A program made the position numbers and the translations under genes. Of a stretch of DNA of 64,000 bases, positions 5,546-30,972 are shown piece after piece. Under the pieces are notes generated by a model. It saw only the letters and a list, made by a program, of their open reading frames with translations. It had not been told where the DNA came from and searched no databases. Source of the stretch: Cavenderia fasciculata (taxonomy: Eukaryota; Evosea; Eumycetozoa; Acytosteliales; Cavenderiaceae); the NCBI RefSeq assembly GCF_000203815.1, contig NW_004457729.1:930674-994673 (forward strand). The letters are read 5' to 3'. The stretch's first letter is position 1. Every line of letters begins with the position of its first letter.

Positions 5546-8500
5546 TTATTTATTGTTCATTTGAGCTAATCTATTGCTCATCATTTTGTTATGTTTGGCA
5601 AAAATTGCTTTCTTTTGATATAATATTACAGTGCCAACAGAGATGGCAATGGCAGCGAATCCACCAACTACAACACCAACAATAATCTTCCATGTTTTAC
5701 TGTTGGTTGAATCACAATCACTTTGAGAGTTGTCGATTAAAAGTGGTGTGAAATCTGGGTCGAGTAAACATGATTGACATTGAGGTAATGATACTCCAAT
5801 CAATGTTGACATGATTGTTGTTGGTGATGGTGATGATTGACTGGTTGTTTGGTTGATCAGTGTTGTTTTGGAGAATGTTGGTCTTCCATCTGATAATACA
5901 TAATCAATGAATCGACCGTTGTATTGGATATTATCTTTGATTACTCTGAGATATTGGATGGTTGATGATAGTTGATCGTATGAAAATGTTGATATCGGTT
6001 GTTGTTTGCACTCATATTCAATCGTTTGGTTCATATTGACATCGGTTCTAAATACAACTCGAAGTGTTGATATTAGATTGCTGTATTGCCAGTTGGTGAT
6101 ATTCAATGCCAGTTTGATTGAGTTTGGATTGATGTGAAGTAGTTGATCTCCAAATTGGATATCTCTTGGTTGTGTTGAGAATGATATCATTGCCTTGACT
6201 ATGGTGCCAGTGTAAATTCGGTTAGTAATATTGACAAGTTGATAATTAACCAAAGTTGTTGAATTATCATTGTTGATGCTTGCATTCCAACTGTTTGTCA
6301 TCAATTCACCAACTACCTTTCCATCTGGATCAATTTCTTGAATAGCAACCAATTCAAAATCACATTTAGTTCCATCAATTTCAAATGATGATGTTGGTGC
6401 TGTTGTATTTGCAGACGGTGTTGTATTGGTATCTAAAATACATTAAATAGATTATTAGCATATTTATCCTTAATTAAAATAATTAATTCTTTTCTCTACA
6501 CATACATTTAGTCAAACAATTATCAATTGGATTATAACCACTATCACATTGACAACGGCCATTAACATCACAAGATCCATGTCCAAAACAATTTGATGTT
6601 GATTCTTGACATTGTGTTTGTGGTGTTGTTCCTCCTCCACCTGTTGTTGATCCAGTGGTTGTTGTAGTTGAACCACCAGAAGTAGTTGTTGAACCATTAT
6701 TATTTGGTGGAGCTGTGAAATATAAAAAGTCATTTGATATATATGGATATCCATCAACAAAGATACTAACATTAGCAGGACCATAACTAGCACTCTCTGA
6801 CAATGTACAATTAATTGCATCAACAGCTGATGATACTACACTACATAGTATTTTATCATTGATTGTAATGTTTGCCAGAGAATGGTTTTGTCTAAAATCA
6901 CCAAACAAATAAATTAATCTTTGATTTGTTGAATCAACTTGTCCTGATAATAATCGAGGGTAATCTATAATATTTGAAAATAAATATATTAATTTAATTA
7001 ATTAGGATATGGTTGTTAATTTTAATTATTCATCAAAATACATTTAAAAGGAACAATAAATGTTTCTAGATTATAAGCATTTGATACTCTAAAAGTATAG
7101 GTTGCAGTATTTAATTGATTAATGTCCAATTCACAACTAACTATTGAACTTCCAAGGGCTTGGTTGTATTGGGTCTGGAATATAGTACAATTTCTTGAAG
7201 ATGGAGACACCGTGAATTGGTGTTGGAGATTATTATTATAGAATAAAAACGTCCAAGTGAACCATACTTTTTGGTTTAATTGTTGAGTGGCATTGACCGA
7301 TGTTAAAATAATGCCAACTTCTTGAATTCTAAAGCTTATAGTATAAGCTTCATTTTCATTCAATTTAATTGATACAGCTTGTTCAAGTCCATTTGTTTGA
7401 TAATATAATCTATAATAATTGAAGGGATGGAAATTAAATAATTAATTAATTATAAATTGCCTGGAGATTTTTTTTTTTAATATTTACGTTAACATTTTCT
7501 GTGGAACTACAGGAACAAGAGTATAACCTCCTTGAGTTGGATGTAGTGCCTCATTACCCCACCCTAGTAGATTTCCTGTGAGGACTCCTCTAAAACCCTT
7601 TGTATAAACCAGAGTTTGATCGATTGTAGGTTGACATGTAAATCCAGGTAGTAAGGTTAGATCAGTTTTAATAATACTTTTATCATTGAAATAGCACCAA
7701 TAACAATCTATAAATGATTTAGATGAGAATGTTGATTAATATAATGGTTATATTATATAATATTGTAATTTTAAATCTATTTCTTACCAGGAAGACTAGA
7801 GATAAGAGTTCCGGTTATATCGAGCTTGTTGATACAAGAACTTGGTGGAACAGTACCAGCAATGGTAGGATTATTACTAATATCGAGTAATCTTGATGTG
7901 TTGTCTGGAGTCATCAATGCCCATGGGACAGTAGTGATTCCGGTCAATCTGTGATACTGCCATTTCTGAAAGTTGGCGGTTGGTGCTGGAAGGGTTGGAA
8001 GTGTTGTAGTTGTTGTAAATTGTCTTATCCTTTAGTATTAAAGAAAATAAATAAATATATTATTATTTAAATACTGTTGATTAAATAAAAAACACATACA
8101 TATGTTGTAATTTTGGGGGGAATACAGTGAATGGGTATTGATCACCCGGGTTAGCATAGTCTGATACAAGATACACTAAATTGACAAATTTATCCAATGT
8201 AGGCACTGAAGTGAATTTTCCTTCAAATCTCCTGTAAAAAATATTGTTGTTGTTGTTAGAATTGAATGAAGAGGGGGTATTGAAATATATTGTACTTACA
8301 ATTGTGTACTTATTTCAGGTGATGGTGAGATCAAGTTGTATAGACCAGTTGGACTGATTGCAAGTAAAGAACTAAAAATGAAATGGTTAAAAAGAGGAAA
8401 AATCTTGGATTTAATAATAATAATATAGGTGACCGTTGATTTTAATTACATACATGGATTGAAAACTAGCAGTGACAGTAATAGTTCCAGAATTAACTTT

Positions 8501-9441
8501 TGCATTGTTTCCAATTGTCAGACTAGCTAATTGTTTGAAAAGTGAATTCTTTAAATTGATTGATAGTGGAGCGTCGGTAGCAGAGACATTAATATAATAT
8601 GAAAAGGCACCCAAGCTGGTCATAAAGCTATTTGTACCATTCTCAAACAATGGATAGGTTTTTAAAGAATTGAAAACAAACGAGGCTGTGGCCAGAGGTC
8701 TTTTAACAGTCAACATATTGTCATTTAAAACGGTAACATTTCCAAATGACAGAGTAGCTCCTGTTAGTGATGGGAAAAACTCTAATAATCCACTTGGAAA
8801 TATTGATGTTCTATCATCAAATATCCTAAATAAATAAATAAATAAATGATTATGTTATGCCTTTGTCTATTTAATTGACTAAGCTTAAAAGGGAGTCATA
8901 CATTATAGAGACTACTTTTGGTAATCCTCCTGTCAACTTGGTGTATACACTTTGATTGGGGTCTCTTAAAAATACTCCGGGTGGTTGAATTTCAAAGGCA
9001 AGACACTCTGGTAGAGAAATAGTAGTAAATGTATTTGGTGCTAATCCATTGGTGATAAATGTTGTATATACAGGTCGTAAATACCTAAGAAATAAATAAA
9101 TAAATAAATAAATAATAATAATTAGTTTTCTATCTTTGCTAAAGTTTCCACTTGATCACCACAACATACACATGTGTAATATGAGCATTGCCAGCTGAAC
9201 ATTCAAATACTGCAGATCCACATATACTATTTGAATCTTCAGCGATGGTGCTACCATATTGACGAATGATCCATACTGCTGAATCAACTATAGAATTAGG
9301 TTAGGTGGAAATATGTTAGAAGTGATGATGATTCTTTGAGGTGAGAGATATTAACATACTTTCATTTTGAGGTAATACTTGACAACTCGTAAACTGTATA
9401 AAACATTGAAGTAGTAGAATAAAAAATACTATCTGTTTCAT
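5546..9441 (-). CDS. Array copy 1: LRR/IPT-TIG/EGF single-pass membrane protein
   Basis: Predicted cell-surface receptor or adhesion protein. Eleven exons on the minus strand: 9441-9360, 9287-9170, 9084-8902, 8825-8454, 8371-8300, 8231-8100, 8029-7788, 7707-7488, 7409-7042, 6964-6506 and 6432-5546. They sum to 1045 codons (1044 aa), which supports the model. Order: signal peptide (1-24); Cys-containing segment with WIIRQYGS; LRR-like region to about 320; a block with TPDNTSRLLDI; CYWCY block; IPT/TIG-like domain (about 597-700); Asn/Thr/Gly-rich stalk; EGF-like domain with CFGHGSCDVNGRCQCDSGY (about 720-750); conserved membrane-proximal domain; TM about 997-1021; tail of about 20 mostly basic residues. 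From memory this resembles Dictyostelium EGF-like/ComC-type proteins. The function is inferred, not shown. Confidence 0.85.
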
Positions 9442-9692
9442 TGTGGTAGTATTTGTTTTTCAAGAGGTGGTGATCATTCAACAAAGGGCGCCCACCCTAG
9501 TATGATATACTTCATCATCTTGTGGATAGTTTGTCGTTACAATATTGGGCGTCAATACTCTTGATACTTGTATGCTTTAAAGGAAAAGAAGGCGCATGAA
9601 ATAATCGCGATAAATATTAATATCTTTGATGTCATTCAAATAAATAGAATCTTTGATTTTGAAAAATATCTAATATTCTATTTATTTTTATG

Positions 9693-12600
9693 TTATTGCA
9701 TATTTTGTAGTTTTTGTTGCATTGCTTTCTTTTGTTTGTTCACTGTAACATTCTTTTTCAATAACATTACAGCACCAACAGTGATGGCAATGGCAGCGAA
9801 TCCACCAACGACAACTCCAACAATAATCTTCCATGTTTTACTGTTGGCTGAGTCACCACAGTCACTTACAGTATTGTCGATTAAAAGTGGTGTGAAATCT
9901 GGGTCAAGTAAACATGATTGACATTGAGGTAATGATACTCCAATCAATGTTGACATGGTTGTTGGTGTTGATGATGATTGACTGGTTGTTTGGTTGATCA
10001 ATGTTGTTTTGGAGAATGTTGGTCTTCCATCTGATAATACATAATCAATGAATCGACCGTTGTATTGGATATTATCTTTGATTACTCTGAGATATTGAAT
10101 GGTTGATGATAGTTGATCGTATGAGAATGTTGATATCGATTGTTGTTTGCAATCATATTCAATCGTTTGGTTCATATTGACATCGGTTCTAAATACAACT
10201 CGAAGTGTTGATATTAGATTATTGTATTGCCAATTGGTGATATTCAATGCTAGTTTGATTGAGTTTGGATTGATGTGAAGTAGTTGATCTCCAAATTGGA
10301 TATCTCTTGGTTGTGTTGAGAATGATATCATTGCTTGAACTATTGTATCAATGTACAGTGCATTACTAATATTGACAAGTTGATAGTCTACAAGGGTTAA
10401 ACCATCACTGTTGGTAATAGTTGCATTCCAACTGTTTGTCAGTAACTCTGCAATGACAATACCTTCATTATCCAATTCTTGAATAGCAACCAATTCAAAA
10501 TCAAATTTAGTTCCATCAATTTCAAATGATGATGTTGGTGCTGTTGTATTTGTAATAGGTGTCGAGTTGGTGACTATAAAATGAATTAAATATTAATATT
10601 AATATTAATTGATTTTTAATAATTAATTAATAATTTTCTACATACATTTAGTCAAACAATTATCAAGTGGATTATAACCATTATCACATTGACAACGGCC
10701 ATTAACATCACAAGATCCATGTCCAAAACAATTTGATGTTGATTCTTGACATTGTGTTTGTGGTGTTGTTCCTCCTCCTGTTGTTGAACTGGTAGTTGTT
10801 GTGGTTGATCCACCAGTAGTTGTTGTTGAACCATTATTATTTGGTGGAGCTGTGAAATATAAAAAGTCTTTGGAAATAAATGAATATCCATCAACTACAA
10901 TATAGACACTTGCAGGACCATAACTTGCACTCTCTGATAAAGTACAATTAATTGAATCTGGTGTCGATGATACAACACTACATGCTATTTTATCGTTAAT
11001 TGTAATATTTGCCAAAGAATGATTTTGTCTAAAATCACCAAACAAATAAACCAAACTTTGATTTGTTGAGTCAACTTGTCCTGATACTAATCTTGGATAA
11101 TCTATTGTTTGTCGAAAGGTATTGAATTATTAATATAATATACCTTTAATATTAATTTCAAACTCTTTGTTTTAATTAATATTAATCTAATACTTACACT
11201 TAAAAGGAACATTGTATGTTTGTTGGTTATAAGCATTTGCGACCAAAAAATTGAATGACATGATGTTTAATTGGCTGACATCTAAATCACATCGTACAGT
11301 TGCATTTCCATATTTATTGTTGTAAATCGTTGCCAAATTTTTGCAGCTACGTCCAAGTGATAAAGGAAGCAGTGTGAAATTGTGTAGTAGAGTGGGATTA
11401 AAGAATAAAAATGACCAATTGAATGAAATGATTTGATTGGGGTTTTGGGTTACATTGACAGATGTGAATATAATGCCAACTTCTTGAATTGTAAACCCAA
11501 CAGTGTGTGCCTCTTTATCATTTAATTTAATCGAAACAGTTTCCTCACTACCATTATTAGTTTTATAATATAATCTATAAAAAAAAAAGAAAAAAAAGAA
11601 AAATTAATATAAATATATCAAAATTAACATTAAATTAATAGTTACTCTAATATTTTGTTTGGAACAATTGGAGTAAGAGTATAATTGCCTTGAGTTGGAT
11701 GTAGTCCATTGTTACCCCACCCTAAAAGCGATCCGGTCAAATTGGCACGATAACCAATTGTATGAATCGTTGAAAGGTCCAAAGTTGGTTGACATGTAAA
11801 TCCAATGGGCAATGGCATACTAGTTTTAAAAATGGTTTGATCATTATAATTGCACCAATAACAATCTATACAATTAATTAAATAATAAATAAAGATAAAA
11901 ATAAATATAATGTCTGCAAAATAAAAATGATGTTCGATATATATTTATCTTTCTTACCAGGTACTTTGGTGATACTAGTAGTTGTGATAAAGAGTTTGTT
12001 GATACAGAAATACTCTGGAACGGTTCCCACAATACCTGGATTACCGCTATCTAAATCGAGTAATCTTGATGTGTTGTCTGGTATCAATGATGCCCATGGC
12101 ACAGTTGCAATGCCACTCAAGTGATGATAAACCCATGTATTAAAGGTAGTTGTTGGTTTTGGAGTAGATGGAAACGTTGTAATATTTGAATATTGTCTTA
12201 CACTAGTGAAAGTAGTAGAAAATATGTAATTATTAATTATTATTATTTCCCAATCTGATTTATATCTATCAATCTATCTATCTATCTATATTTCAACATA
12301 CTATTGTGTTAGACTTGGGGGAAAACTTGTGAAAGGGTAACCATTTCCAATATCAGAATACTCGAAAATAAGTTTATATAAATTGTTAAATTGGTGTAAT
12401 GGAGGTGTACTCGTTAACCTTCCTCTAACTTTACTAAATTAATTTAAAGTTTAAATAAATAAATAAATATCAATTTGTTCTTCATTTTTCTGTTTTTTTT
12501 TTTTTTTTTTTTTTTTGAATTGTTGTTAATACTTACAGCTGTTTGACAGCATCTGGATTCAAAGAAACCAAGTCGATAGAGGTTTTAGGATCATTTTCAG

Positions 12601-13751: not shown

Positions 13752-14191
13752 TTTATCTTATTTGTTGGGGGGTGTTTAGAAACGAAAAGTATTAGAGTTG
13801 TTGTTTGTTCTAGATGATCTAAATTTTATGATGATCTATGGTACACAACCCCCCATTATCAGAACCTTCTCATGAAGTCGAATAAATATCTTGCAACAAA
13901 CGGATCGATTTTTAAAATATCATCAAACCAGTGCTGGATTTTGTCGTTTGTTTGATGAGCCGAGGAAGATCGAGGTCATACTATTGATGACATCACACAA
14001 ATAAAGAATGACCCAATTATTTTCCTGAATCAATTATGCATTTGGACAAATAGTTGTTGGGTGAATCATTGCCATAGAAATAAATTTTGTTTTGGAATTA
14101 GCCTACCATCATTTATTTCTAACAAATAATTTGTTATAAACGACTCACGTTGTACGAGAATGATGATGTTGAAAAGAAAATGTTTTTTTTT
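13752..14191. other. Intergenic region upstream of array copy 2
   Basis: About 440 bp of AT-rich sequence between the start of copy 2 and the 3' end of the small coiled-coil gene. I see no ORF, RNA gene or clear repeat; it presumably contains the promoter of copy 2. Confidence 0.45.
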
Positions 14192-14522
14192 TTAAATAAA
14201 TATTTGTAAATTGGGTGGGTAAATGTTCTGATTCGAGACTTCTTGGTGCAAGCTATTCGATTTCTTTAATTCTTCTAGTTCTTCTTGTAATAGTTGTAAC
14301 TTTTTAATAATCTTTGATTGGATGGTTTCTATGTTTATTGTTGCTCTCCACCAACAAATGTTCAAGTGAACCGGGAAGTTCTTTGATTTCTTTGTCCTTC
14401 TTATTGAGTAAATCCTTTTCCAACACGTGTTGTCTATGCAATGCCTTCTTGTAATTTTCTTTCATCGTTATTGTTTCTGTTAAGAGTTTATCGAACTCGT
14501 TACACTTTGGACATTCATACAT
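14192..14522 (-). CDS. Small CxxC/coiled-coil protein, unrecognised
   Basis: A compact gene wedged between array copies 2 and 3 on the same strand. It opens MYECPKCNEFDKLL and runs through a Lys/Glu-rich helical stretch. The first open frame then stops, but a second frame continues with KKLQLLQEELEELKKSN, an obvious coiled coil, to a stop at 14192-14194. The two can be joined by removing a 43-bp GT...AG segment (14329-14371), giving 95 residues in frame. That intron is shorter than the others here and its donor (GTTCAC) is weak, so a single frameshift in a decaying gene is the alternative. An ORF extension upstream (to 14549) crosses a possible splice acceptor. The CxxC pair near the N-terminus could bind zinc. 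No family recognised. Confidence 0.45.
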
Positions 14523-14738
14523 GATTAGTACTAGTACTGGAATTAACAAATGAATAGTATTTACATAATATTAGCTTTCTATAATTGGTATAATCGAATT
14601 TTTATTATAAAAATTTTATCATCAAATTTTATTTTTAACAATTTAAACAATACATCCATAAAATGATGTTGTTGGTGATGGACGTTGTGTTTGGTGTATT
14701 GGATAACCAATTATTATCAATTTGGATCAGTGTCTAGA

Positions 14739-17700
14739 CTAGGACATATTCTTTAATTTGTTCTGCATTTTTTTGTTTTGGTGGGAACTAGTTTTCTTCT
14801 TTTTAATATATATTACAGTGCCGGTGGCAATGGCAAGAGCGACAAATCCACCAACAACAACACCAACAATAATCTTCCATGTTTTACTGTTGGTTGAATC
14901 ACAATCACTTTGAGAGTTGTCGATTAAAAGTGGTGTGAAATCTGGGTCGAGTAAACATGATTGACATTGAGGTAATGATACTCCAATCAATGTTGACATG
15001 ATTGTTGTTGGTGATGGTGATGATTGACTGGTTGTTTGGTTGATCAGTGTTGTTTTGGAGAATGTTGGTCTTCCATCTGATAATACATAATCAATGAATC
15101 GACCGTTGTATTGGATATTATCTTTGATTACTCTGAGATATTGGATGGTTGATGATAGTTGATCGTATGAAAATGTTGATATCGGTTGTTGTTTGCAGTC
15201 ATATTCAATCGTTTGGTTCATATTGACATCGGTTCTAAATACAACTCGAAGTGTTGATATTAGATTATTGTATTGCCAATTGGTGATATTCAATGCTAGT
15301 TTGATTGAGTTTGGGTTGATGTGAAGTAGTTGATCTCCAAATTGGATATCTCTTGGTTGTGTTGAGAATGATATCATTGCTTGAACTATCGTATCAATGT
15401 ATAGTGCATTACTAATATTGACAAGTTGATAGGTGACAAGAGTTGTTGTAGTATCATTGTTGATAGTTGCATTCCAACTGTTTGTCAGTAACTCTGCAAT
15501 GACAATACCTTCATTATCAATTTCTTGAATAGCAACCAATTCAAAATCAAATCTTGTTCCATTGACCTCAAATGATGATGTTGGTGCTGTTGTATTTGCA
15601 ATAGGTGTTGAGTTGGTATCTAAATTGGAAAAATAATTAATTAATTAATTGTTTTAATTTAAATAATTAAATTGACACGTACATTTAGTCAAACAATTAT
15701 CGATTGGATTATAACCACTATCACATTGACAATGACCACTAACATCACAAGATCCATGTCCAAAACAATTTGATGTTGATTCTTGACATTGTGTTTGTGG
15801 TGTTGTTCCTCCTCCACTTGTAGTTGTTGATCCAGTAGTTGTAGTAGTTGAACCATTATTATTATTTTTAAAAAATAAAAAGTTGTTTGCTTCAAATGGA
15901 TATCCATCAACTACGATACTAACATTGGCAGGACCATAACTAGCACTCCCTGATAATGTACAATTAATTGCATCAACAGCTGATGATACAACACTACATG
16001 ATATTTTATCATTAACAGTAATATTTGCTGATGAATGATTTTGTCTAAAATCACCAAACAAATAAACTAATCTTTGATTATTCTGATCAACTTGTCCTGA
16101 TAATAATCGAGGATAATCTAATATTTGATAATATTTGTGTGTTAGTTTGATATTCTGTAAGATTTAAATTATTAATTGAATACGTAACATACATTTAAAA
16201 GGAACGGTGAAGGTTTCTTGATTATAAGCATTTGATACCGAGAATGTATAGATGGTAGTTATTAATTTGCTCATATCCAATTCACAACTAACTATTGAAC
16301 TTCCAGTGCCAAAGTTGTATTGTATCAGTACTATCGTACAATTACGGCCATCCAAAGCTGGAAGTAATTTGAATTGGTGTTGAAGATTTTTATTGTAGAA
16401 TAAAAACGTCCAGGTGAACCATACTTTTTGGTTTAATTGTTGTGTAGCATTGACCGATGTTAAAATAATGCCAACTTCTAAAAGTGTCAGATCCACTGAA
16501 TAGGATGATAGTTCATTCAATAAAATTCTAACATTTTGTTGTTGTCCATTTGTTTGATAATATAATCTATAATAATCGATTAACAAAAAGGAATTTAATG
16601 AATTGAAGCTGAACAAAAAAATATGGTATTTAATAAATAGATTGATTGATATAGTTACGTTAAAATTATATGTGGGAGTACAGGAGTAAGAGTATAATTT
16701 CCTTGGGTTGGGTGAGAAGCAGTATTCCCATATCCTAGTAAAGTGCCAGTCAGGTTGGCTCGGAACCCCTTTGTATAAAGAATGGTTTGATCAAATGTCG
16801 GTTGACATGTAAATCCAGGGGGCATGGCCAAACTAGTTTTTATAACAGTTGTATCATTATGATAACACCAATAACAACCTAAATATAAATAAATGAGTCA
16901 GTCATATGTATTACTTTTTAAAAAGCTTAAACATACTTGGAATACTAGTGATAGCAGTATTAGTGATATCGAGTCTGTTGATACAGAAACTATCTGGAAC
17001 TGAACCGGTAAGTCCTGTATTACCAGAGACATCAAGGAATCTCGATGTGGAGTCTGGTGTCAATCCTTCCCATGGAATTACCATTGACGGGTACAAGTAA
17101 TAATATCTCCACGCCTTAAAGTTTGGGGTTGGTAGTGGAAATGTTGGAAGAGTTGTTGATGTGTTTGTAAATGATTTAGTACTAAATAGAATAATTATTA
17201 TTATTAATAATAATAATAATAATTGGGTCAATACAATAAATATACAATATATATTCTAAAACTATTGTTAATGTAATCTTACAATAAAGCCAAGTTTGGT
17301 GGAAACACTTCAGTGAATGGATAACCCTCACTCTGTAAAAGATCAACGCCCAATTTTATCAAACCTGTATATAGGCCACCCAAAGGAGGTGAGATTGTTG
17401 ATTTACCATTTAAAGTTCTAGATATAATATTTGATTAGATTTTTAATTAAAGAAACATAAACAGTCTTATCACTGCTACCTACAATTCTTGTAATACTTG
17501 AGGATTAGGAGCAGTCAAATCGAATCCATATTCGCTCGATCCCAAGATACCCCTATAATTATTTAAATGAATCATCAAGTTAGATATTAAGGGTAGTCGA
17601 GCTATTTGTTTCTGTGAATAATACAAACATTTTGGGAAAGTTTGCTTTAACTTTAATCGTTGCAGTATTAGCACTTTGCAACATCAATAGTTGTAGATTT

Positions 17701-18685
17701 GGGAAAATGGTCGATGAAAACTCGAGTGAAATAGGAGCAATCGCATTTGATTCGTTGATTCTAATAGTAAGTTCCTGCACTGAATTCCATAGCAGTGTCG
17801 TTGAACTGTTACTAAACGGCGGATAACTTTTCAATGCATAGAATTTAAAGTAGACACGTGTAATTGTAGGGTTTGGGCTCACTTCAAATGAACTCTCTTG
17901 CAACGATGTAACATTGCCAAGATTCAAATTTAGTTCAACCAATGATGTAAAAGGTTTGAGAAATCCAATTGGAATGTTTGGTATTGAGTCTTCTGTCATA
18001 CTTTATAAAGACAAAGAATAGGTTAGAATATATGATCGTAGAGTATTGAGTAGTACTAGTAGGTTGACGACACATACATGAGATTTCCTACTTTAGGTAA
18101 ACCAGTTAGTTTATCGAGAATCGATTGATTAGGATCACCTCTGAATGTTTCAACGATAGGTCTGAGAGCGAATTGAATGCACTCTGGTAGATTGATTGAA
18201 GGTAACAATGCATTAGGTATACCAGCTGTAGCTGTAAAAGCAGACGACTGTGAACCAAAGTTACTTTAATAACAATAATAATAATAATAGATGTTAGATG
18301 TATGAGTTTTCTATGCAGTCTGATCGCGATCAACGATGAATGAATACCTACACTCCTGTTATATGACCATTTGCGCATGTGAAAGCTCCAATTGCTGCAC
18401 ATATACTCGCTGCATCTTGTCCAATGTTACTACCATATTGTCGAATGATCCAAACAATAGAATCAACTATAGAATATAATTATATTGGTTGAGGGGAATG
18501 CGTTAGAATTTAAATGTGGTACCTCTCTTGGACAATAAAAAAAAAAATCCAAATAAAAGCAGTCCGAAGTTCACACCCAAGCTCACTCACCTTCTACCTG
18601 TGGCAATATCTGAGCTCTTGTTGATGGAATAACAAAAAAGCAATAAATGAACAAGTATGTTAATATTTGAATGAATAATTTCATT
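14739..18685 (-). CDS. Array copy 3: LRR/IPT-TIG/EGF single-pass membrane protein
   Basis: Third paralogue. The signal peptide begins MKLFIQILTYLFIYCFFVI at 18685, followed by the conserved WIIRQYGS exon. The LRR-like exon at about 17580-18000 has TEDSIPNIPIGFLKPFTSL. The block with TPDSTSRFLDVSGN is at 16930-17190, CYWCY-type exon at 16665-16880, IPT-preceding exon 16190-16567, IPT/TIG plus stalk plus EGF-like exon 15680-16120, and the last exon runs from about 15620 to the stop at 14739. The tail reads KKKKTSSHQNKKMQNKLKNMS. The outer face of the IPT domain ends FFKNNNNG, unlike copies 1 and 2 (APPNNNG). No break seen. Role inferred as for copy 1. Confidence 0.82.
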
Positions 18686-18889
18686 TTCTTTCTTTTCTTA
18701 TTTGTTTGAGGATTAAATAATGATAGTCAAAGATGAATTTTGGTGATCGGTTGATAAGGGGGTACGCGAAAGAAAATTCATAAATATCTTTATTTTTATA
18801 ATTAATCATTAGAAATATCTATAGGTTCAATGAATAAATTTATAAGATAAGATTGAGATGATGATTGGTGATTATATAGATTGGATTGG

Positions 18890-21800
18890 TTATTTTTCAC
18901 TTTCCATATTCTGCAATTTGTTGTTCATTTTTTTGTTTTGGCGGTTCACAGTTCTATTCTTTTTCAATAACATTACAGCACCAACAGTGATGGCAATGGC
19001 AGCGAATCCACCAACGACAACTCCAACAATAATCTTCCATGTTTTACTGTTGGTTGAATCACAATCACTTTCGGATTTATCGATTAAAAGTGGTGTGAAA
19101 TCTGGGTCAAGTAAACATGATTGACATTGAGGTAGTGATACTCCAATCAATGTTGACATGATTGTCGTTGTTGGTGTTGATGATGATTGACTGGTTGTTT
19201 GGTTGATCAATGTTGTTTTGGAGAATGTTGGTCTTCCATCTGATAATACATAATCGATGAATCGACCGTTGTATTGGATATTATCTTTGATTACTCTGAG
19301 GTATTGAATGGTTGATGATAGTTGATCGTATGAGAATGTTGATATCGATTGTTGTTTGCAATCATATTCAATCGTTTGGTTCATATTGACATCGGTTCTA
19401 AATACAACTCGAAGTGTTGATATAAGATTGCTATATTGCCAGTTGGTGATATTCAATGCCAGTTTGATTGAATTTGGATTGATGTGAAGTAGTTGATCTC
19501 CAAATTGAATATCTCTTGGTTGTGTTGAGAATGATATCATTGCTTGAACTATAGTATCAATGTACAGTGCATTACTAATATTGACAAGTTGATAGTTGAC
19601 AAGAGTTGTTGTAGTATCATTGTTGATAGTTGCATTCCAACTGTTTGTCATCAATTCTCCAACTACATTCCCATCATTATCAATTTCTTGAATAGCAACC
19701 AATTCAAAATCAAATCTTGTTCCATTGACCTTAAATGATGATGTTGGTGCTGTTGTATTTGTAATAGGTGTAGAGTTGGTGACTATAAAATTAAGAAATA
19801 GAATTAAATATTAATATTATTGATTTTTAAATTAATTAATTGATGTAATTTTAAATTAAATAATTTTCTACATACATTTAGTCAAACAATTATCAATTGG
19901 ATTATAACCACTATCACATTGACAACGACCATTAACATCACAAGATCCATGTCCAAAACAATTTGATGTTGATTCTTGACATTGTGTTTGTGGTGTTGTT
20001 CCTCCTCCTGTTGTTGAACTGCTTGTTGTTGATCCAGTAGTTGTTGAACCATTATTATTATTATTATTATTTTTAAAAAATAAAAAGTTGTTTGCTTCAA
20101 ATGGATATCCATCGACCGTGATACTAACATTAGCAAGACCAAAAATTGCTCTTGAATTCTCTGACAATGTACAGTTAATTGCATCGATAGTTGATGATAC
20201 AACACTACAAGATGTTTTATGATTAATTGTAATGTTTGCTAAAGAATGATTTTGACCAAAATCACCAAACAAATAAATCAAACTTTGATTATTCGAATCA
20301 ACTTGTCCTGATAATAATCGAGGATAATCTATAATATTTAAAAAGAATGAATATATTAATATATGATTTTTAATAATTAATATTATTTATCAAAACACAT
20401 ACATTTAAAAGGAACAGTGTAAGTTTCCTTATTATAATCATTTGATATTTCAAACTTGAATGATGTACCAACAGTTGTAAACGATTGATTTAACGCTATT
20501 AGACAAGTATATATGGCTTGAATGGAAGATAAGTTGAGCTGAGCTGAATAAATGTCACAAATTCCAATCAATGAATCCGACAGTGGTTTGAAATTGTGAA
20601 TAAGCTTGGTATTGATAAATGGAAAAACCCAAGTAAACTCCAAGATATGATTTGGTAGTTGAGTGACATTGACCTTTGACAATATAATTCCAACCTCTAA
20701 AATTGTTAAAGGAAATGAATAAGATTGAAATTCATTTAATGTAATAACAGTATTGATTTGAGTTCCATCGGTTTTATAATATAATCTAAAAGACCATAGT
20801 TGGTTGAATGAGTTAATATTAAATAATAAATAAATAAAAATAAAAATATTATATATTTATAGTTACTCTAATATTTTATGTGGGACTATAGGAGTAAGAG
20901 TATAATTTCCTTGAGTTGGGTGAGAAGCAGTATTCCCCCACCCTAGATTAGAGCCTATGATTAAACCACGGAAACCTTTAGTGTAAATAGTACTATTATC
21001 AATTGATGGTTGACATGTAAATCCAGGGGGGAGCGGCAAAGTGGTTCGGAAAACAGTTGAATCATTTCGATAGCACCAAAAACAATCTATACAAATAATA
21101 TAAGAAAGATTCTTAATTAATATATTAGAATTAAATATTAATGAATAAGCCTTCTTACCTGGAACACTAGATATATTGGTTGATGATATATAGAGTTTGT
21201 TGACACAAAAACTATCTGGAACCGATCCAGAAAGTTGAGGGTTGAATTGGACATCGAGTAATCTTGATGTGTTATCAGGTGCCAATGCTTCCCATGGGAT
21301 TACGACATCCTTGCCCAGCGAACGATATTCCCAAGATTTAAATGTAGTTGTTGGCAATGGAGAATATGGAAGTGTTGTAATCGCTGTGTCATATTTGATA
21401 CTATAAAAAATTATTAATAATGGGAATAATCATAAATATATATAAATATAATAAATATATATTTTAATATCGTGCATCATAACATACAATTTTTGTAACT
21501 TTGGAGGGAATGTTGAAAAAGGGTAAGTAGTAGTATTTGCATGACTAGTTTCCAAAGTCAATAAATTTGTAAAAAGGTGTAATGGAGGTGAAACTGTAGA
21601 AATACCATTTAATGTCCTATATAATTATATTTGTGATTAGTAATTGATTGAAAACGTACTAAATTTAATTTCAACACTCCACTTCATACATGTATTCAAC
21701 AATGTCTGGGTTTGGAACAGTAACATTAAATCCATTGGCTAAATATCCAAAGAAAAACCTAGAGACAGTAAAATTAAAATTAATTATAATTAATTTAATA

Positions 21801-22899
21801 TTTATATTTAAAATGATCATCCCAATCACTAAGTATACTTACATATATTCAACACTTGCAGTAACTGAAACTAATCCATCTGCGTATGACCCAATTTGAA
21901 GGATTTCCAAGTATGGGAATACAGATTGTGGAAAGACGAGTGAAATGGGTTCATCGGCTGCAGTAGAATTGGTAAGGAATGAGAAAAACCTCAATTGCCT
22001 CCACATCAATGATGTGGAAGTATTGGTAAAGGTAGGATACTTTTTCAAAATGTTGAATTGGAGATAGGCAGATGCGATTGAATTGGTTGCTATTTCAAAT
22101 GACTGTTCATTGAATACTGTCATGTTGAATAGGGTTAATGTAATGGATGTCAGTACAGGGAAGTTCTTTAAAAAACCTACTGGTATACTTGGTGATACTA
22201 GGTCATGAATTCTGTTTGACAAAAAAAAAAAAAAAAAGGAACTTAATTAATTGTTTCTATCTATCTATCTATCTATCATTATACATACAATATAGAAGTT
22301 ACTTTTGGAAGATTTGTTAATTTATCAAGAATTGATTGGTTTGGATCACCGACATACTTGGCATTGGGGAATGGTTGAACATCTAATAAAAGACATTCAG
22401 GGAAATCGATAGCTGTCAAAGATGGGTCAGGAGCACCAGTTCCATTTATATTAAATGTAGTAGTTGTCATTGACAATTGACTAAGATAGATAGATAGATA
22501 AAGAAACATGTCAGTACTTGTGTATCCATCCAAAAACTCCTATCATATGCATAATAATAATAACTCACACAGTTACAATATGACCATTTTCGCACGTAAA
22601 CACTGCTGATGAACATATACTCGATACATCTTGTGCAAGCTCGCTACCGTATTGACGAATGATCCATATTGCTGAATCAACTATTATAGAATAGAATAAA
22701 TAAATTGTCTTTGAAATTAGAACTGGCACTATTCTTTTTTAAAATATGATCTCTCTCTTATCTCTCTATCAATAATAATTAGTTTTAACTCACTTTCTAC
22801 CTGTGGAATTAGCTGAGCTGTTGTTATATAATGACTAATGTAAACTACATAAAATAGAACAACAAACGTTATATGTTTGATTGTATCTCTATATTTCAT
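18890..22899 (-). CDS. Array copy 4: LRR/IPT-TIG/EGF single-pass membrane protein
   Basis: Fourth paralogue. Its start at 22899 opens MKYRDTIKHITFVVLFYVVY, a signal peptide with a charged lead. LRR-like exons lie at about 21840-22480, the TPDNTSRLLDV block with PWEALAPDNTSRLLDVQFN at 21160-21400, CFWCYRND exon at 20875-21090, and the IPT-preceding exon at 20400-20785, which is the most divergent of its kind in the array. IPT/TIG-stalk-EGF exon is at 19880-20330, last exon to 18890. The tail ends NNKLQNMESEK. The IPT domain carries a small insertion (SENSRAIFGLANVS where others read SESASYGPANVS). No break seen in the exons I translated. Confidence 0.82.
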
Positions 22900-23303
22900 T
22901 GTGTTTGATGATGGTGATAATAATGATGGTCAACAAGTTGCGTTTCTAGATACTCATGATGTGCTGTTGCAATTGTTGTAAGATCTTGCTTGCTTGTACT
23001 TACAGATATTATAAATAATATTTACCAAATATCTATTCACCGATTCCCAATGATTATAAAGATATTTATAATCTTCTTCTTGGGATCAAAGTATCATCAA
23101 TGGGAAAACGATCAATAAAACTAACCACAGATTTGTCCCCATTTCATTTTTATGTATTATTATTATTTGGACTCAATAGGATGCATAAAAGAAGAAAAGA
23201 ATGAGGGATGTGATGAATAAATAAAGGACATCAGATTATGATATTTATTGTAGATAGAGTATACATGAAAGTACAAAATGTTATGTACATTTGTATAATG
23301 GAA
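22900..23303. other. Intergenic region between array copies 4 and 5
   Basis: About 400 bp upstream of copy 4 on the minus strand. AT-rich, with no convincing ORF or structured RNA seen. Probably contains the promoter of copy 4 and the 3' end of copy 5. Confidence 0.45.
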
Positions 23304-26300
23304 TTATACCTTGTTTTTAAGAGCTTTCATAAATATCATTGGTTTAGAGTATTTAAAGTTGGATTTTTTGAGATAGATCGCTAATCCAACTATGACTGCT
23401 ACCAAGGCAGTACCACCAACAACTACACCAACAATAATCTTCCATGTTTTACTGTTGGTTGAATCACAATCACTTACAGTATTGTGATTCAGTATTGTCG
23501 ATTAAAAGTGGTGTGAAATCTGGGTCGAGTAAACATGATTGACATTGAGGTAGTGATACTCCAATCAATGTTGACATGATTGTTGTTGGTGATGGTGATG
23601 ATTGACTGGTTGTTTGGTTGATCAATGTTGTTTTGGAGAATGTTGGTCTTCCATCTGATAATACATAATCGATGAATCGACCGTTGTATTGGATATTATC
23701 TTTGATTACTCTGAGATATTGAATGGTTGATGATAGTTGATCGTATGAGAATGTTGATATCGGTTGTTGTTTGCAATCATATTCAATCGTTTGGTTCATA
23801 TTGACATCGGTTCTAAATACAACTCGAAGTGTTGATATTAGATTGCTGTATTGCCAATTGGTGATATTCAATGCCAGTTTGATTGAGTTTGGATCGATGT
23901 GAAGTAGTTGATCTCCAAATTGGATATCTCTTGGTTGTGTTGAGAATGATATCATTGCTTGAACTATCGTATCAATGTATAGTGCATTACTAATATTGAC
24001 AAGTTGATAGTTGACTAGAGTTGTTGTAGTATCATTGTTGATAGTTGCATTCCAACTGTTTGTCAGTAATTCTGCAATGACAATACCTTCATTATCCAAT
24101 TCTTGAATAGCAACCAATTCAAAATCAAATCTTGTTCCATCCACTTCAAATGATGATGTTGGTGCTGTTGTATTTGTAATAGGTGTTGAGTTGGTGACTA
24201 AAATTGGAAAAATAAATTAATATATTAATTTTAAATTAAATATTTCTTTTTTCTCTCTACACATACATTTAGTCAAACAATTATCAATTGGATTATAATC
24301 ACTATCACATTGACAACGGCCATTAACATCACATAATCCATGTCCAAAACAATTTGATGTTGATTCTTGACATTGTGTTTGTGGTGTTGTTCCTCCTCCA
24401 CCTGTCGTTGTTGTAGTTGAACCATTATTATTTGGTGGAGATATGAAATATAAAAACTCTTTAGCCATAAATGGCTTACCATCAACTACGATACTAACAT
24501 TAGCAGGACCATAACTAGCACTCTCTGACAATGTACAATTAATAGCATCGACAGTTGATGATGTAACGCTACATGCTATTTTATCGTTGATTGTAATAGT
24601 TGCCAAAGAATGATTTTGACCAAAATCACCAAACAAATAAATTAATCTTTGATTTGTTGAATCAACTTGTCCTGATACTAATCGAGGATAATCTATAATA
24701 AATAATATTCGAGGATAATCTAATATTTGATAAATAAATAAAATAATGAGTCATTTAACAATCAATGTACATTTCATCATCCTCATCATTTACAAACAAA
24801 CTATATTTACATACATTTAAAAGGAACAATAAATGTTTCTTGATTAAAAGGATTTGATACTCTAAAAGTATAGGTTGCAGTATTTAATTGACTGTTATCC
24901 AATTCACAACCAACTATTGAACTACCAGATGTAGAGTTGTAATTGGTCGAAACAATTACACAATATCTACCCAATTCAACAGGGAGTAGTTGGAACTGGT
25001 GTTGAATGAAGATGATCATTGAAGAATAAAAATGACCAAGTAAACCGTAATTTGTCGTTTGGTATTTGAGTGACATTGACCGACGCCAATATAATGCCAA
25101 CCTCTTGTATCTAGAGGGAAATTGTATAAGATTGATATACATTTAATTTAAAGGTATTGATTTGCACAGTTCCACTTGTAGGATAATATAATCTAAATTG
25201 ATTTTAATCAAATGTATTGATTGTGATTAATATTAAAAATAAATATATATTTTGTATAGTTTTAGTTACTCTAATATTTTATGTGAAAGGGTTTCCGTGG
25301 TTTAATCACAGGCTCTAATCTAGGATGGGGTATTACCCAAGGATCATATACTCTTACCCCTATAGTTCCACATATACGAAAGTGTCATCTCCACAGTGAG
25401 GTGATTTTATGTGATACAAAAACTATCGGAAACTAATCCATCAAGTGTTGTATTGTTACTAATATCAAGTAATCTTGATGTATTATCTGGTGTCAACAAT
25501 GCCCATGGAATTACTACAAATCCTATTATAGATGAGTATTTCCACTCTTTAAATGATACTGGTGGAGTTGGAGATGTTGGAAATGTTGTCATTGCTGAGT
25601 ATACTGTTAAACTAAATCAATCATATATATATAATTAGTAATGATATTAATATATATGAATGGACGATAACATACAATTTTTCCAACTTGGGAGGAAACT
25701 TTGAAAAAGGGTAGACATCACTGTTTGAAAACCCAGTAGTCAACGTTTTTAAATTTAAGAATTGTTCTAATGGAGGTGAAACGGTTGTTTGACCATCAAT
25801 CCTCCTATAATATAAATGATTGTCAGTATAAAAAAAAAAGGTAGCATTATTCAAAAATCACAACAAAAAAAATAGATTCTTCAGCTTACAAATTAACTAC
25901 TTTGCTTGGATTTGGAACAGTTAATGCAAAGCCATTGGTAGCTTGTCCTAAAAGATATCTAGAAATGAATAAGATAATGAATGATAAATAAAAAATAGAT
26001 ATAGAGTTTGAAATATATTCTTGTTCAGCAACATCTGTAGTCTGCTTTTCACCAATAATAATAATACTCTACTTACATATTTATGCAACTTATAGAAACT
26101 GTGATGGTTGCCATATCCAAGTTGGAAAGTTGTAGGTATACCAAGTTTGGGAAAACGGTTGGTGAAAAGGTGAGAGAAATGGGAGAGTCAGAGGCACTTG
26201 AATTAATATTCATACTCAACTGAGTCAATGATCTCCACAACAACGATGAAGATCTATTGCTAAACGATGGATAGCTTTTCAATGCAATGAACTCGAAACC

Positions 26301-26808
26301 AGCAATTATTGTTGTTGCAGAGGTCACCTCGAATGAGCCTTCTTGTAACACTGTAATGTTACCAAGATCTAATGTCAGGCTTATCAATGATGTAAAAGGT
26401 TTGAGAAATCCAATTGGAATATTTGAAATGACATCCTCATACATGCTATATAAATATATATATTGTTGGTAGTAGTAGTCGTAAGTATTGAGTAGTGAAT
26501 ATCCTATTGTGTATTATGAATAGTTTAAACTTACGATAAAGATTTAACCTTTGAGACGATCGTTAATTTGGTCAATATTGATTGATTAGGATCGCCTCTA
26601 AAATTACCGATTGGGTGGATATCCAATTGGGCACACTCTGGTAGCGATAGAGCTGTCAACGACGGATCTGGAACTAATCCAGTGTTAATAATAAAAGGAG
26701 AGGTCGCTGGGCTTAATAATCTAATATTAGATTTGAAATGGTCAGTTCAACATTCAAACTTTGAATACAAAAGATGAGTGCAATGATTATAATCTGAACT
26801 ATCTTCAT
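23304..26808 (-). pseudogene. Array copy 5: rearranged and probably non-functional receptor paralogue
   Basis: Closest to copy 6 but broken in at least four places. (1) After the signal peptide (start 26808) the Cys-containing WIIRQYGS exon is missing; sequence jumps into what is intron 2/exon 3 in copy 6 and soon meets a stop. (2) At about 25285-25374 a block matching the KGFRGL...LGWG...YTLTPIVPH exon is inverted, so it reads on the + strand, and the neighbouring CYWCY coding and its intron are lost. (3) The exon before the IPT domain is frameshifted near 25000. (4) A 13-bp duplication at 23477-23489 shifts the frame just before the TM segment. Downstream, intact TM-coding sequence continues to a stop at 23304 with a tail unlike the other copies. 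The IPT/EGF exon (24250-24690) and LRR exon (26073-26444) are still open. This is a host gene; its loss looks recent because most exons remain clean. Confidence 0.8.
25285..25374 (+). other. Inverted exon fragment inside array copy 5
   Basis: The + strand here encodes KGFRGLITGSNLGWG followed by TLTPIVPH. In every other array copy this motif is encoded on the minus strand (for example near 20880-21000 and 28970-29090). The sequence on both sides is in the normal minus-strand orientation, so the block was flipped in place. Copies of cacata lie at both boundaries. Confidence 0.85.
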
Positions 26809-27037
26809 ATTCTTAAGATCTGATATCTATTATTATGTTAATAATAGAAAACCTACAAAGAACGGAGATTGACAACAAAACTAACGAAAAAATCTTTGCT
26901 ACGACATGTCGTCGTGATGCATGGACATTCAATGAAATTTCAGATCTTTCTTTTCTTATTTTTTTTTTTTTATAATCTTATTTATTTACAAATCAAATGA
27001 TTGCGATTTGATTGCTAACTATAGTGCTACTGATAAC

Positions 27038-30000
27038 CTACTTGGACATATTCTTTAATTTGTTTTGCATTGATTTGTTATGACGGTTCATAGTTTTCTT
27101 TTTTTTCATATATATTACAGTGCCCGCAGCAATGGCAATGGCAGCGAATCCACCAACGACAACTCCAACAATAATCTTCCATGTTTTACTGTTGGTTGAA
27201 TCACAATCACTTTGAGAGTAGTCAATTAAAAGTGGTGTGAAATCTGGGTCAAGTAAACATGATTGACATTGAGGTAATGATACTCCAATCAATGTTGACA
27301 TGATTGTTGTTGGTGTTGATGATGATTGACTGGTTGTTTGGTTGATCAGTGTTGTTTTGGAGAATGTTGGTCTTCCATCTGATAATACATAATCAATGAA
27401 TCGACCGTTGTATTGGACGTTATCTTTGATTACTCTGAGATATTGGATGGTTGATGATAGTTGATCGTATGAGAATGTTGATATCGATTGTTGTTTGCAA
27501 TCATATTCAATCGTTTGGTTCATATTGACATCGGTTCTAAATACAACTCGAAGTGTTGATATAAGATTATTGTATTGCCAGTTGGTGATATTCAATGCCA
27601 GTTTGATTGAGTTTGGATTGATGTGAAGTAGTTGATCTCCAAATTGGATATCTCTTGGTTGTGTTGAGAATGATATCATTGCTTGAACTATCGTATCAAT
27701 GTATAGTGCATTACTAATATTGACAAGTTGATAGGTGACTAGAGTTGTTGTAGTATCATTGTTGATAGTTGCATTCCAACTGTTTGTCAGTAATTCTCCA
27801 ACGACAATACCTTCATTATCCAATTCTTGAATAGCAACCAATTCAAAATCAAATCTTGTTCCATCCACTTCAAATGATGATGTTGGTGCTGTTGTATTTG
27901 TAATAGGTGTTGAGTTGGTGACTAAAATTGGAAAAATAAATTAATATATTAATTTTAAATTAAATATTTCTTTTTTCTCTCTACACATACATTTAGTCAA
28001 ACAATTATCAATTGGATTATAACCACTATCACATTGACAACGGCCATTAACATCACAAGATCCATGTCCAAAACAATTTGATGTTGATTCTTGACATTGT
28101 GTTTGTGGTGTTGTTCCTCCTCCTGTTGTAGTTGTTGATCCAGTAGTCGTAGTAGTTGAACCATTATTATTATTTTTAAAAAACAAAAAGTCATTTGCTT
28201 CAAATGGTTTCCCATCAACTACGATACTAACATTAGCAGGACCATAACTAGCACTCCCTGACAATGTACAATTAATAGCATCCGCAGCCGATGATACAAT
28301 ACTACACGCTATTTTATGATTAATTGTAATAATTGCTAGCGAATGATTTTGACCAAAATCACCAAACAAATAAATTAATCTTTGATTTGTTGAATCAACT
28401 TGTCCTGATACTAATCGAGGATAGTCTATAATAAATAAATAAAAGAATGAATAAATATAATTATAATTTTACAATCATACTCTTTTCATGTTTATATATA
28501 TATTTACATTTAAAAGGAACGGTGAATGTTTCTTGATTAAAAGGATTTGATACTCTAAAAGTGTAGGATGGCATATTTAATTGGCTGTTATCCAATTCAC
28601 AAATGACCATCGAGCTTCCAGATGTAGAGTTGTAGTTTGTTGTTGTACGTTGACATTCACGACCCAATTGAAGAGGGAGTAGTTGAAACTCGTGTTGAAG
28701 ATGATCATTGTAGAATAAAAACATCCAAGTAAACAATAATTTATCGGTTGGTATTTGAGTGACATTGACCGATGTCAATATAATGCCAACCTCTAAAAGA
28801 TCTAAATCAACTATATATGATTCTTTTTCATTTAATTTAATCGAAACTGATTGTTGTGATCCAATTGTACGATAATATAATCTAATAGTAAATATAAATT
28901 GTGATTAATACTAATAGGATACAAAAATAATAAATAAATATAAAAATATAGTTATAGTTACTCTAATATTTTATGTGGGACTATGGGAGTAAGAGTATAA
29001 TATCCTTGGGTGGCGTGAAGAGCAGTATTACCCCACCCTAGATAAGAGCCAAACAAAAGTCCACGGAAACCTTTAGTGAAAATAGTACTATTATCAATTG
29101 ATGGTTGACATGTAAATGGAGTTGGATATGCTAAACTTGTTTGAATAACAGATGGGTCATTATAATAACACCAATAACAATCTATATACAAACAAAATAA
29201 ATCAATTTTTAATTAATAAAAGAATTATTCTATTTTTCTCTTTTTTTTTTTTTTTTTTTAACTTACATGGAATAGTTAAAATATTGGTATCTGTGATAAT
29301 GAGTTTGTTGATACAAAAACTATCAGGAACTGATCCAGTAAGTATTGGGTTGTTACTAATATCAAGTAATCTTGATGTATTATCTGGTGTCAACAATGCC
29401 CATGGAATTACTACAAATCCTATTATCGATGTATATGACCACCCTTTAAATGATACTGGTGGAGTTGGAGATGTTGGAAATGTTGTCATCGCTGAGGATA
29501 CTGTTGAACTATATCAATCAAATCATATATATATAATTAATAACGATGATCGATCGAAACCTAACAGTTTTGGTAATATTAATAGACGATAACATACAAT
29601 TTTTCCAACTTGGGAGGGAATTTTGAAAAAGGGTAGACATCACTATTTGAAAAGCCAGTAGTCAACGTTATTAAATTTACAAATTGTTCTAATGGAGGTG
29701 AAACGGTTGTTTGACCATCAATCCTCCTATAATATAAACGATTGTTAGTATAAAAAAAAGGTAGCATTATTCAAAAATCACAACAAAAAAAAATAGATTC
29801 AGCTTACAAATTAACTACTTTGCTTGGATTTGGAACGGTTAATGCAAAGCCATTGGTAGCTTGTCCTAAAAGATATCTAAATAAATAAATTAATTAATTA
29901 ATATCGATATATTTCTAAGCAGCAGGCAGTCTGCTTATTACCTAATAATAACAATACTTACATATTTATGCAACTTATAGAAATAGTGATGGTTGCCACA

Positions 30001-30972
30001 TCCAAGTTGAAAAGTTGTAGTAATACTAAGTTTGGGAAAATGGTTGGAGAAAAGGTGAGAGAAATGGGAGAGTCGGCAGCACTAGAATTAATATTCATAC
30101 TCAACTGAGTCAATGATCTCCACAACAACGACGAAGAACTATTGCTAAACGATGGATAACTTTTCAATGCAGTGAACTCGAAATCAACATTTGTTATTGA
30201 TGCAGAGGTCACCTCGAATGAACCTTCTTGTAACACTGTAATATTACCAAAGCTTAATATCATACTTGACAATCCGATAAAAGGGTTGAGAAATCCAATT
30301 GGAATATTTGAAATGACATCATCATACAAGCTATATAAATATATATATATTGTAGGTAGTAGGGTTATTCAGTAATCAATTAAATATAAAATATATATAT
30401 ATATTATCAAAACTTACGTCATGGTTATGACCTTTGAGACGATAGTTAATTTGGTCAATATTGATTGATTAGGATCGCCTCTGTAGGGACCGATTGGGTG
30501 GATATCGAATTGGACACACTCTGGTAGTGATAGAGCTGTCAACGACGGATCTGGAATTAATCCAGTACCCAAAAATGTATTGGTTGATTGAACCAATGAT
30601 CTAATATTCATTTAAATGGTCGGATATTAGTAACTAGATCTAGATAACCAAATTTGAAATTGTTGTATTCTACTCACACTCGAGTCAAGTGACCATTTTC
30701 ACATTTGAATGCAGCTGATGCGCATATACTTGGTATATCTTGTACAATATTACTACCATATTGACGAATGATCCATATTGCTGCATCAACTAGAATAAAT
30801 AAATAAATAAAATAGATATTAATATTAATATTAGATATTTGTGTTTATGAATCCTTTCTAAAAATAGTTTTAAATCACACATACGTTCTTCTTGTGGTAT
30901 CTGAGCATTCAAAGTTTGAATGCAAAAGATGAGTCCGATGACTATAATCTGAACTACCACTTTTATATTCAT
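27038..30972 (-). CDS. Array copy 6: LRR/IPT-TIG/EGF single-pass membrane protein
   Basis: The most upstream and apparently intact member, and the nearest relative of broken copy 5. Start at 30972 (MNIKVVVQIIVIGLIF...), signal peptide, then the exon with WIIRQYGSNIVQDIPSIC. LRR-like exons are at about 29580-30610, with GSFEVTSASITNVDFEF. The TPDNTSRLLDISNN block is at 29270-29500, CYWCYYND exon at 28968-29180, IPT-preceding exon at 28505-28880, IPT/TIG-stalk-EGF exon at 27990-28430, and the last exon to 27038 with tail KSMQNKLKNMSK. An in-frame upstream ATG (31014) would add 14 residues ahead of the signal peptide and was not chosen. The 3' end of the ankyrin-type gene lies about 220 bp upstream on the same strand. 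Confidence 0.82.

What the first reader, a model, noticed from the sequence alone, without database searches (positions are those of the whole stretch)
5546..30972. Six-copy tandem array of modular surface receptors (candidate recognition/adhesion system)
Six head-to-tail genes encode the same modular protein: signal peptide, Cys-containing domain, LRR-like region, IPT/TIG-like domain, Thr-rich stalk, EGF-like domain, conserved membrane-proximal domain, TM and basic tail. Known dictyostelid allorecognition genes (tgrB1/tgrC1) are also IPT/TIG-containing single-pass proteins in expanded families. Inference: this array may be a surface-recognition or adhesion repertoire. I know of no functional description of these genes.
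Basis: partly seen in the sequence, partly recalled or inferred. Interest (0 to 1): 0.75.

Follow-up and report, generated by a model that had tools for sequence, protein, structure and literature searches.

The report
Amoeba receptor array with variable tips
A social amoeba carries a tandem row of cell-surface receptor genes whose outer tips differ strongly at the predicted binding face while their membrane-near halves stay nearly alike, a pattern that suggests a recognition repertoire, although what the receptors bind is unknown.

Summary
The array is real: six head-to-tail minus-strand units at 5546-30972, five intact 11-exon genes (1034-1055 aa) and one broken unit, in Cavenderia fasciculata. 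The nearest family is ComC, not Tgr: all six units carry Pfam ComC_SSD, with at least 150 such stretches in this genome; no Tgr sequence was available to compare. A structure model gives an LRR horseshoe, tandem IPT-type folds and a supersandwich resembling lysosomal GLMP. (1) The LRR half and the EGF-SSD half have conflicting genealogies, with much lower synonymous divergence in the latter, in 3 of 3 gene sets tested. (2) Variation concentrates on the exposed face of the LRR strands in the same 3 sets. I read them as LRR recognition receptors with a membrane-near half kept alike within loci, probably to dock a shared partner. Omega at the exposed face is near 1, not shown to exceed 1; introns give no support for conversion tracts. 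Ligand, expression, localisation and strain variation could not be tested.

The parts
5546..9441 (-). g1 (DFA_00692), intact, 11 exons, 1044 aa; exons 1-9 9441-7042, exons 10-11 (second IPT fold, Thr linker, EGF, SSD, TM, tail) 6964-5546
   Evidence: spliced model; identical to deposited P0002
9693..13751 (-). g2 (DFA_00693), intact, 11 exons, 1054 aa; exons 1-9 13751-11198, exons 10-11 11101-9693
   Evidence: deposited P0003 (1079 aa) keeps my intron 4 as coding and starts exon 10 later
14739..18684 (-). g3, intact, 11 exons, 1041 aa; exons 1-9 18684-16193, exons 10-11 16117-14739
   Evidence: deposited DFA_00695 (P0118) fuses it to g4
18890..22899 (-). g4, intact, 11 exons, 1055 aa; exons 1-9 22899-20403, exons 10-11 20328-18890
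23337..26809 (-). g5, broken copy: two in-frame stops, two frameshifts, exon 1, most of exon 2 and exon 8 not recognised; left out of all codon analyses
27038..30972 (-). g6, intact, 11 exons, 1034 aa; exons 1-9 30972-28508, exons 10-11 28425-27038
   Evidence: deposited DFA_00697 (P0001) fuses it to part of g5
5546..6432 (-). exon 11 of g1: ComC_SSD, TM and tail
9693..10573 (-). exon 11 of g2: ComC_SSD, TM and tail; 9858-10571 was folded alone
7788..9084 (-). g1 exons 3-7, coding most of the LRR horseshoe with the variable exposed strand face

Best explanation
These are type I cell-surface LRR receptors of the ComC family, one local array of a repertoire of at least 150 ComC_SSD coding stretches. 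Shown by computation: the LRR half keeps old, diverged lineages and varies most at the exposed face of its strands, while the EGF-SSD half has low synonymous divergence within loci and another genealogy. Inferred: the LRR face binds ligands that differ between copies; the half kept alike is a common stalk and docking module for a shared partner, because the short basic tail has no recognised signalling domain; it is kept alike by gene conversion or unequal exchange. Ligand class is a guess: microbial or prey surfaces about 45%, conspecific cells about 35%, other 20%.
Against: Omega at the exposed face is not significantly above 1, and in the C17 run it is below 1 (p 0.018), so relaxed constraint on that face is not excluded. 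The site test M2a over M1a in exons 2-9 (2dlnL 13.18, p 0.0014) can be inflated by recombination; it was stronger still in exons 10-11 (44.6), where I do not believe it for the tail. Exposed and buried classes come from a predicted model and hydrophobicity. The genealogy is mosaic: near residues 29-65 C7_a is closer to C7_b, the exon 7-9 tree does not join C7_a to g6, and in exon 10 the five C5 genes do not form one group. SSD trees of C14 and C17 have mostly weak branches. Introns and 3' flanks are not clearly homogenised, which simple conversion tracts would predict. No ligand, expression or localisation data; signal peptide and TM were read from sequence and model only.
Confidence: 0.63

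Rival explanations
1. Allorecognition or greenbeard system: the copies, or strain-specific alleles of them, distinguish kin from non-kin during aggregation, as TgrB1/TgrC1 do.
For: Social amoeba; IPT-type folds in the model; comC listed with aberrant aggregation; duplication and recombination are proposed to diversify tgr genes (preprint passages).
Against: Tgr allorecognition uses a polymorphic divergent pair (passage); here all six units are on one strand and the genome has at least 150 SSD stretches, 83 of them in 25 clusters. Strain polymorphism was not testable.
Confidence: 0.2
2. General cell-cell or cell-matrix adhesion proteins with little ligand diversity; LRR divergence is drift after duplication.
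For: LRR, IPT and EGF mosaics are common in adhesion proteins (general knowledge); omega at the exposed face is near 1, as relaxation would give.
Against: The rise is confined to the exposed strand face in three gene sets; buried strand and remaining LRR positions are at omega 0.22-0.43.
Confidence: 0.2
3. The conflict of genealogies comes from swapping of 5' halves between loci (exon shuffling), not from keeping 3' halves alike.
For: Topology alone cannot say which half moved; introns near the boundary are uninformative.
Against: Within a locus dS is lower in the 3' half than in the 5' half (C7 pair 0.15 in exon 11 against 0.85 in exons 1-6; C1 pair 0.14 against 0.33), with similar pS gradients in C14 and C17.
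Confidence: 0.2
4. Relics or artefact: a decaying array or misassembly.
For: One of six units is broken; in the C17 run 4 of 11 models needed a stop or frameshift; deposited models fuse neighbours.
Against: Five intact frames of over 1000 codons; omega 0.34 in exons 2-9 and 0.22 in exons 10-11 of nine subfamily genes; exon 11 copies differ at dS 0.13-0.26, so they are not collapsed repeats.
Confidence: 0.04

Closest known systems
ComC family (Pfam ComC_SSD PF22933, LRR_ComC PF24141, Beta-sand_ComC_2nd PF24143), e.g. DDB_G0292098 and D. citrinum ACTFIU_006117
   Same: LRR with a PDCFxCY-type end, beta sandwiches, EGF, SSD, TM, short tail; aligned over most of the length.
   Different: About 20% identical to g1; LRR_ComC and TIG models do not match g1, g4, g6 at E <= 1; here in local arrays with 3' exons kept alike. 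comC itself was not identified among the hits.
Tgr (Tiger) family, TgrB1/TgrC1
   Same: Transmembrane, IPT domains, expanded family in a social amoeba (passages).
   Different: No LRR, EGF or SSD in the passages I read; tgrB1/C1 are a divergent pair, here head-to-tail. No Tgr sequence compared.
Mammalian TLR1/TLR6 (PMC2077338, abstract)
   Same: Tandem LRR receptors whose C-terminal part is kept alike by gene conversion while the N-terminal part diverges.
   Different: No TIR domain here; a different receptor family; many more copies; the resemblance is in pattern and LRR fold.
GLMP (NCU-G1), accessory subunit of the lysosomal transporter MFSD1
   Different: 8% identity; no hit of the SSD profile among PDB sequences at E <= 10; partner unknown.
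OG5_153020 IPT/TIG, EGF-like, C-type lectin family (PMC4334915 Table 2 passage)
   Same: Reported expansion outside the D. discoideum lineage, 50 members in D. fasciculatum and 9 in D. discoideum; may overlap this family.
   Different: Whether the array genes belong to that group was not checked; the passage mentions no LRR or two-halves pattern.

Membership tests
ComC family | ComC supersandwich domain (PF22933) above cut-off | tested here: met
   Six of six units over 24 bits.
ComC family | N-terminal LRR homologous to the ComC LRR | tested here: met
   LRR fold and profile-profile alignment through the LRR and its PDCFxCY-type end. Against: the Pfam model LRR_ComC itself gave no match at E <= 1 to g1, g4, g6.
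ComC family | IPT/TIG-type beta sandwiches | tested here: met
ComC family | EGF-like domain | tested here: inconclusive
   EGF_2 18.4 bits, cut-off 22.1, in g1, g4, g6; E <= 0.01 in 18 of 36 C. fasciculata members, two of the 36 being array proteins.
ComC family | Role in development (comC: aberrant aggregation) | not testable with these tools
   No expression or mutant data for C. fasciculata.
Tgr family | Sequence homology to TgrB1/TgrC1 | not tested
   No Tgr sequence was available; the lists name none, but most rows bear only hypothetical-protein or EGF-like names.
Tgr family (B1/C1 pair) | Divergent gene pair with a shared promoter | tested here: not met
   All six units on the minus strand, gaps 205-987 bp.
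Tgr family (B1/C1 pair) | High polymorphism between strains | not testable with these tools
   Only one C. fasciculata genome was at hand.
LRR recognition receptors | Excess variability on exposed residues of the LRR strands | tested here: met
   Three of three gene sets.
LRR recognition receptors | Positive selection (omega > 1) on that face | tested here: inconclusive
   Partition omega 0.87, 1.08, 0.67, none significantly above 1; M2a p 0.0014 with recombination caveat.
GLMP / NCU-G1 | Homologous luminal domain | tested here: inconclusive

The most novel reading that the evidence does not exclude
Cavenderia uses well over a hundred ComC-type receptors as an innate recognition repertoire built like antigen receptors in logic though not in mechanism: a variable LRR tip and a constant module, kept alike by conversion, with a GLMP-like supersandwich that docks a shared multi-pass membrane partner. 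It would be a candidate for the missing bacterial pattern receptors of amoebae, which lack Toll-like receptors.
Probability: 0.27. Interest if true: 0.87.

Novelty: new variant of a known kind. Interest (0 to 1): 0.6.

Why it matters
How amoebae recognise bacteria and each other is open: D. discoideum does not have Toll-like receptors (PMC5758549 passage). A large LRR receptor family with a mapped, variable face and a half that is kept alike gives concrete candidate binding residues, defined ectodomains to express, and a prediction of a common partner. It would also extend to a distant eukaryote, and to several loci, the TLR1/TLR6 pattern in which gene conversion holds one part of a receptor constant while the other diversifies.

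Tried and rejected
Tgr membership: kept only as a rival, because the family hit is ComC_SSD and no Tgr sequence could be found. IPT/TIG by Pfam on g1, g4, g6: no match; a genome-wide TIG search scored 150 of 449 candidates and listed none in this array, so the IPT call rests on the model. NCU-G1 (GLMP) family search: matched nothing anywhere, uninformative. SSD profile against PDB sequences: 0 hits at E <= 10. Shared promoter motif: a scan of 450 bp upstream of 15 genes for G/C-rich boxes gave matches in 5 of 15, no pattern. Introns as a test of conversion tracts: too short and diverged, trees poorly supported; they neither support nor exclude cDNA-templated conversion. One intron comparison fits co-conversion (intron 9 of the C1 pair, identity 0.83, z 12). 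The C14 and C17 exon-intron comparison used a permissive aligner and is only rough. The exon 10-11 site test (2dlnL 44.6) is discounted: its five sites with posterior 0.98 or more lie in the poorly aligned tail (1027-1042), though sites 644, 665 and 783 reach 0.87-0.91. A few single-exon pairwise omegas exceed 1 (C1 pair exons 3 and 6, 1.83 and 1.96; g4/C7_b exon 5, 2.99; C7 pair exon 5, 1.07; g4/g6 exon 9, 1.24); they are short and untested. Selection tests exclude g5 and, in the C17 run, 4 of 11 models with a stop or frameshift. A last profile search returned 13 proteins: 7 from C. fasciculata, one unnamed protein with ComC_SSD (P0119) and five LRR proteins without it, so the taxonomic limit of the family is not established. 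Foldseek gave low whole-length scores for the 1044-residue model. tRNA scan of the window: 0.

Literature: ten answered searches. In those listings I found no description of these genes or of a two-halves pattern in ComC genes; the library lacks most subscription papers, and a genome paper looked up by a DOI that I recalled was not held. Seen as passages only: PMC4931340, PMC4334915, PMC3188802, PMC11088635, PMC12324515 (preprint), PMC5758549, PMC2474670, PMC2873529; abstract and outline: PMC2077338; GLMP/MFSD1 papers: search listing with abstract starts only. PMC11754127 gave no comC passage. In PMC2474670 comC appears with negative values in a table of responses to Pseudomonas; I drew nothing from it.
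Full report
What is there. The window lies in a 31.0 Mb, 21-contig genome (G000:C5:930674-994673), and its array genes are deposited as Cavenderia fasciculata proteins (DFA_00692, DFA_00693, DFA_00697). I built the g1 model by eye and the others by spliced protein-to-DNA alignment. Five units are intact, with 11 exons, GT-AG introns and 1034-1055 codons; unit 5 is broken. Gaps between neighbours are 205-987 bp. Deposited models fuse g6 with part of g5, and g4 with g3.

Family. The SSD exon of all six units matches Pfam ComC_SSD; the genome holds at least 150 such stretches (282 candidates, 150 scored, all 150 over the cut-off). Grouped within 10 kb, 83 of the 150 lie in 25 clusters, 52 of 58 neighbouring pairs point the same way, and 40 lie on the 0.94 Mb contig C17. 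The closest relatives of the array are a pair on C1 and a pair on C7, which with the five make nine genes whose models have no stop or frameshift. Dictyostelium relatives carry LRR_ComC, Beta-sand_ComC_2nd, TIG, EGF and ComC_SSD in varying sets. A profile-profile comparison aligns 36 C. fasciculata with 17 Dictyostelium proteins over 940 columns, and an Acytostelium relative exists.

Two halves. Among the five intact C5 genes mean pS is 0.68, 0.47, 0.71, 0.68, 0.73 and 0.62 in exons 1-6, 0.47-0.56 in exons 7-9, 0.25 in exon 10 and 0.18 in exon 11, with a low of 0.04 around the EGF. Such low synonymous divergence is unlikely to be protein constraint alone. Trees bear this out: with nine genes, exons 1-6 group C7_a with g6 (100) and C7_b with g4 (81), while exon 11 groups the C7 pair (100), the C1 pair (100) and the five C5 genes (88); AU tests reject C7_a with C7_b, and the five C5 genes together, in exons 1-6, and reject C7_a with g6 and C7_b with g4 in exon 11. 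The change lies near residue 590-600 of g1, between the two IPT folds, and similarity falls again after about residue 976, in TM and tail. The picture is mosaic: near residues 29-65 C7_a is closer to C7_b, exons 7-9 give a weak tree without C7_a beside g6, and exon 10 groups the two pairs but not the five C5 genes. Two other sets, the C14 array (6 of 6 genes) and a C17 run (7 of 11 models), show the same pS gradient and significant LRR-SSD conflict, though with weak branches inside the SSD trees. I infer that the block from the second IPT fold through the SSD is repeatedly kept alike within loci. Introns in and beside it are not clearly alike; fast intron turnover, exon-limited tracts or cDNA-templated conversion could explain that, and I cannot choose.

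Recognition face. Using the model's strands and hydrophobic alternation only, I split strand residues into exposed and buried. Mean posterior omega from a site model on exons 2-9 is 1.38 at exposed, 0.52 at buried and 0.59 at other LRR positions (permutation p printed as 0.0000 of 20000), with exposed above buried in 10 of 12 strands. Limiting the others to polar positions gives 0.61 and 0 of 20000. Carried over by alignment, the same positions have higher entropy in the C14 and C17 sets (0 of 10000 in each of four mappings). With dS shared, omega at exposed, buried and other positions is 0.87, 0.35, 0.33 (subfamily), 1.08, 0.43, 0.30 (C14) and 0.67, 0.24, 0.22 (C17). So the exposed face accepts replacements about 2.6 to 3.6 times as readily as the rest, but is not shown to exceed the neutral rate. 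The M2a test (p 0.0014) hints at a few positively selected sites; four of the ten sites I looked at (201, 253, 298, 342) are exposed strand positions, but recombination can inflate it. Over six pairs, omega is 0.41-0.79 in exons 1-6, 0.23-0.39 in exon 10 and 0.24-0.37 in exon 11, except 0.67 for the C7 pair.

Interpretation. A receptor whose binding face diversifies while its membrane-near half is kept alike is best explained by many ligands and one partner. The published precedent is TLR1/TLR6, whose authors propose co-evolution with binding partners as the reason (abstract). Allorecognition remains possible but needs strain data. The comC gene points to development ('Has EGF domains', S+T in its column, group 4 only, in a table of PMC4931340); a repertoire of this size in one genome fits environmental sensing at least as well. 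An expanded IPT/TIG-EGF gene group in D. fasciculatum has been reported (50 members against 9 in D. discoideum), so expansion itself is not new.

Verdict. The family is ComC, a known kind; the two-halves pattern and the mapped face make it a new variant as far as my searches show.

Noticed in passing
window 23337-26809: By eye, the tail of the broken unit g5 resembles that of C7_a (L054) more than those of its neighbours, a hint of exchange between loci.
   Followed up: no
P0001, P0118, P0117 (DFA_00697, DFA_00695, DFA_07013): Deposited gene models fuse adjacent receptor genes: g6 with part of g5, g4 with g3, C7_a with C7_b.
   Followed up: yes
G000:C17 (0.94 Mb): 40 of the 150 scored ComC_SSD stretches sit on this small contig, among them a run of 10; in another run 4 of 11 models carry a stop or frameshift.
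   Followed up: partly
P0038 (DFA_04439): A deposited protein combines ComC_SSD with ankyrin-repeat Pfam accessions (the names of those accessions are recalled), either a real chimera or a fused gene model.
   Followed up: no
introns 9 and 10 of the array genes: Introns within or beside the 3' block are much less alike than its exons.
   Followed up: partly
window 14180-14540, minus strand: A short open stretch, seen by eye, lies in the long gap between g3 and g2; it may be a small gene or a fragment.
   Followed up: no
window 31191-32894 and 4046-5457: By eye from the translations, the array is flanked by a gene with ankyrin-like repeats beyond the g6 start and a WD40-like gene beyond the g1 end.
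   Followed up: no
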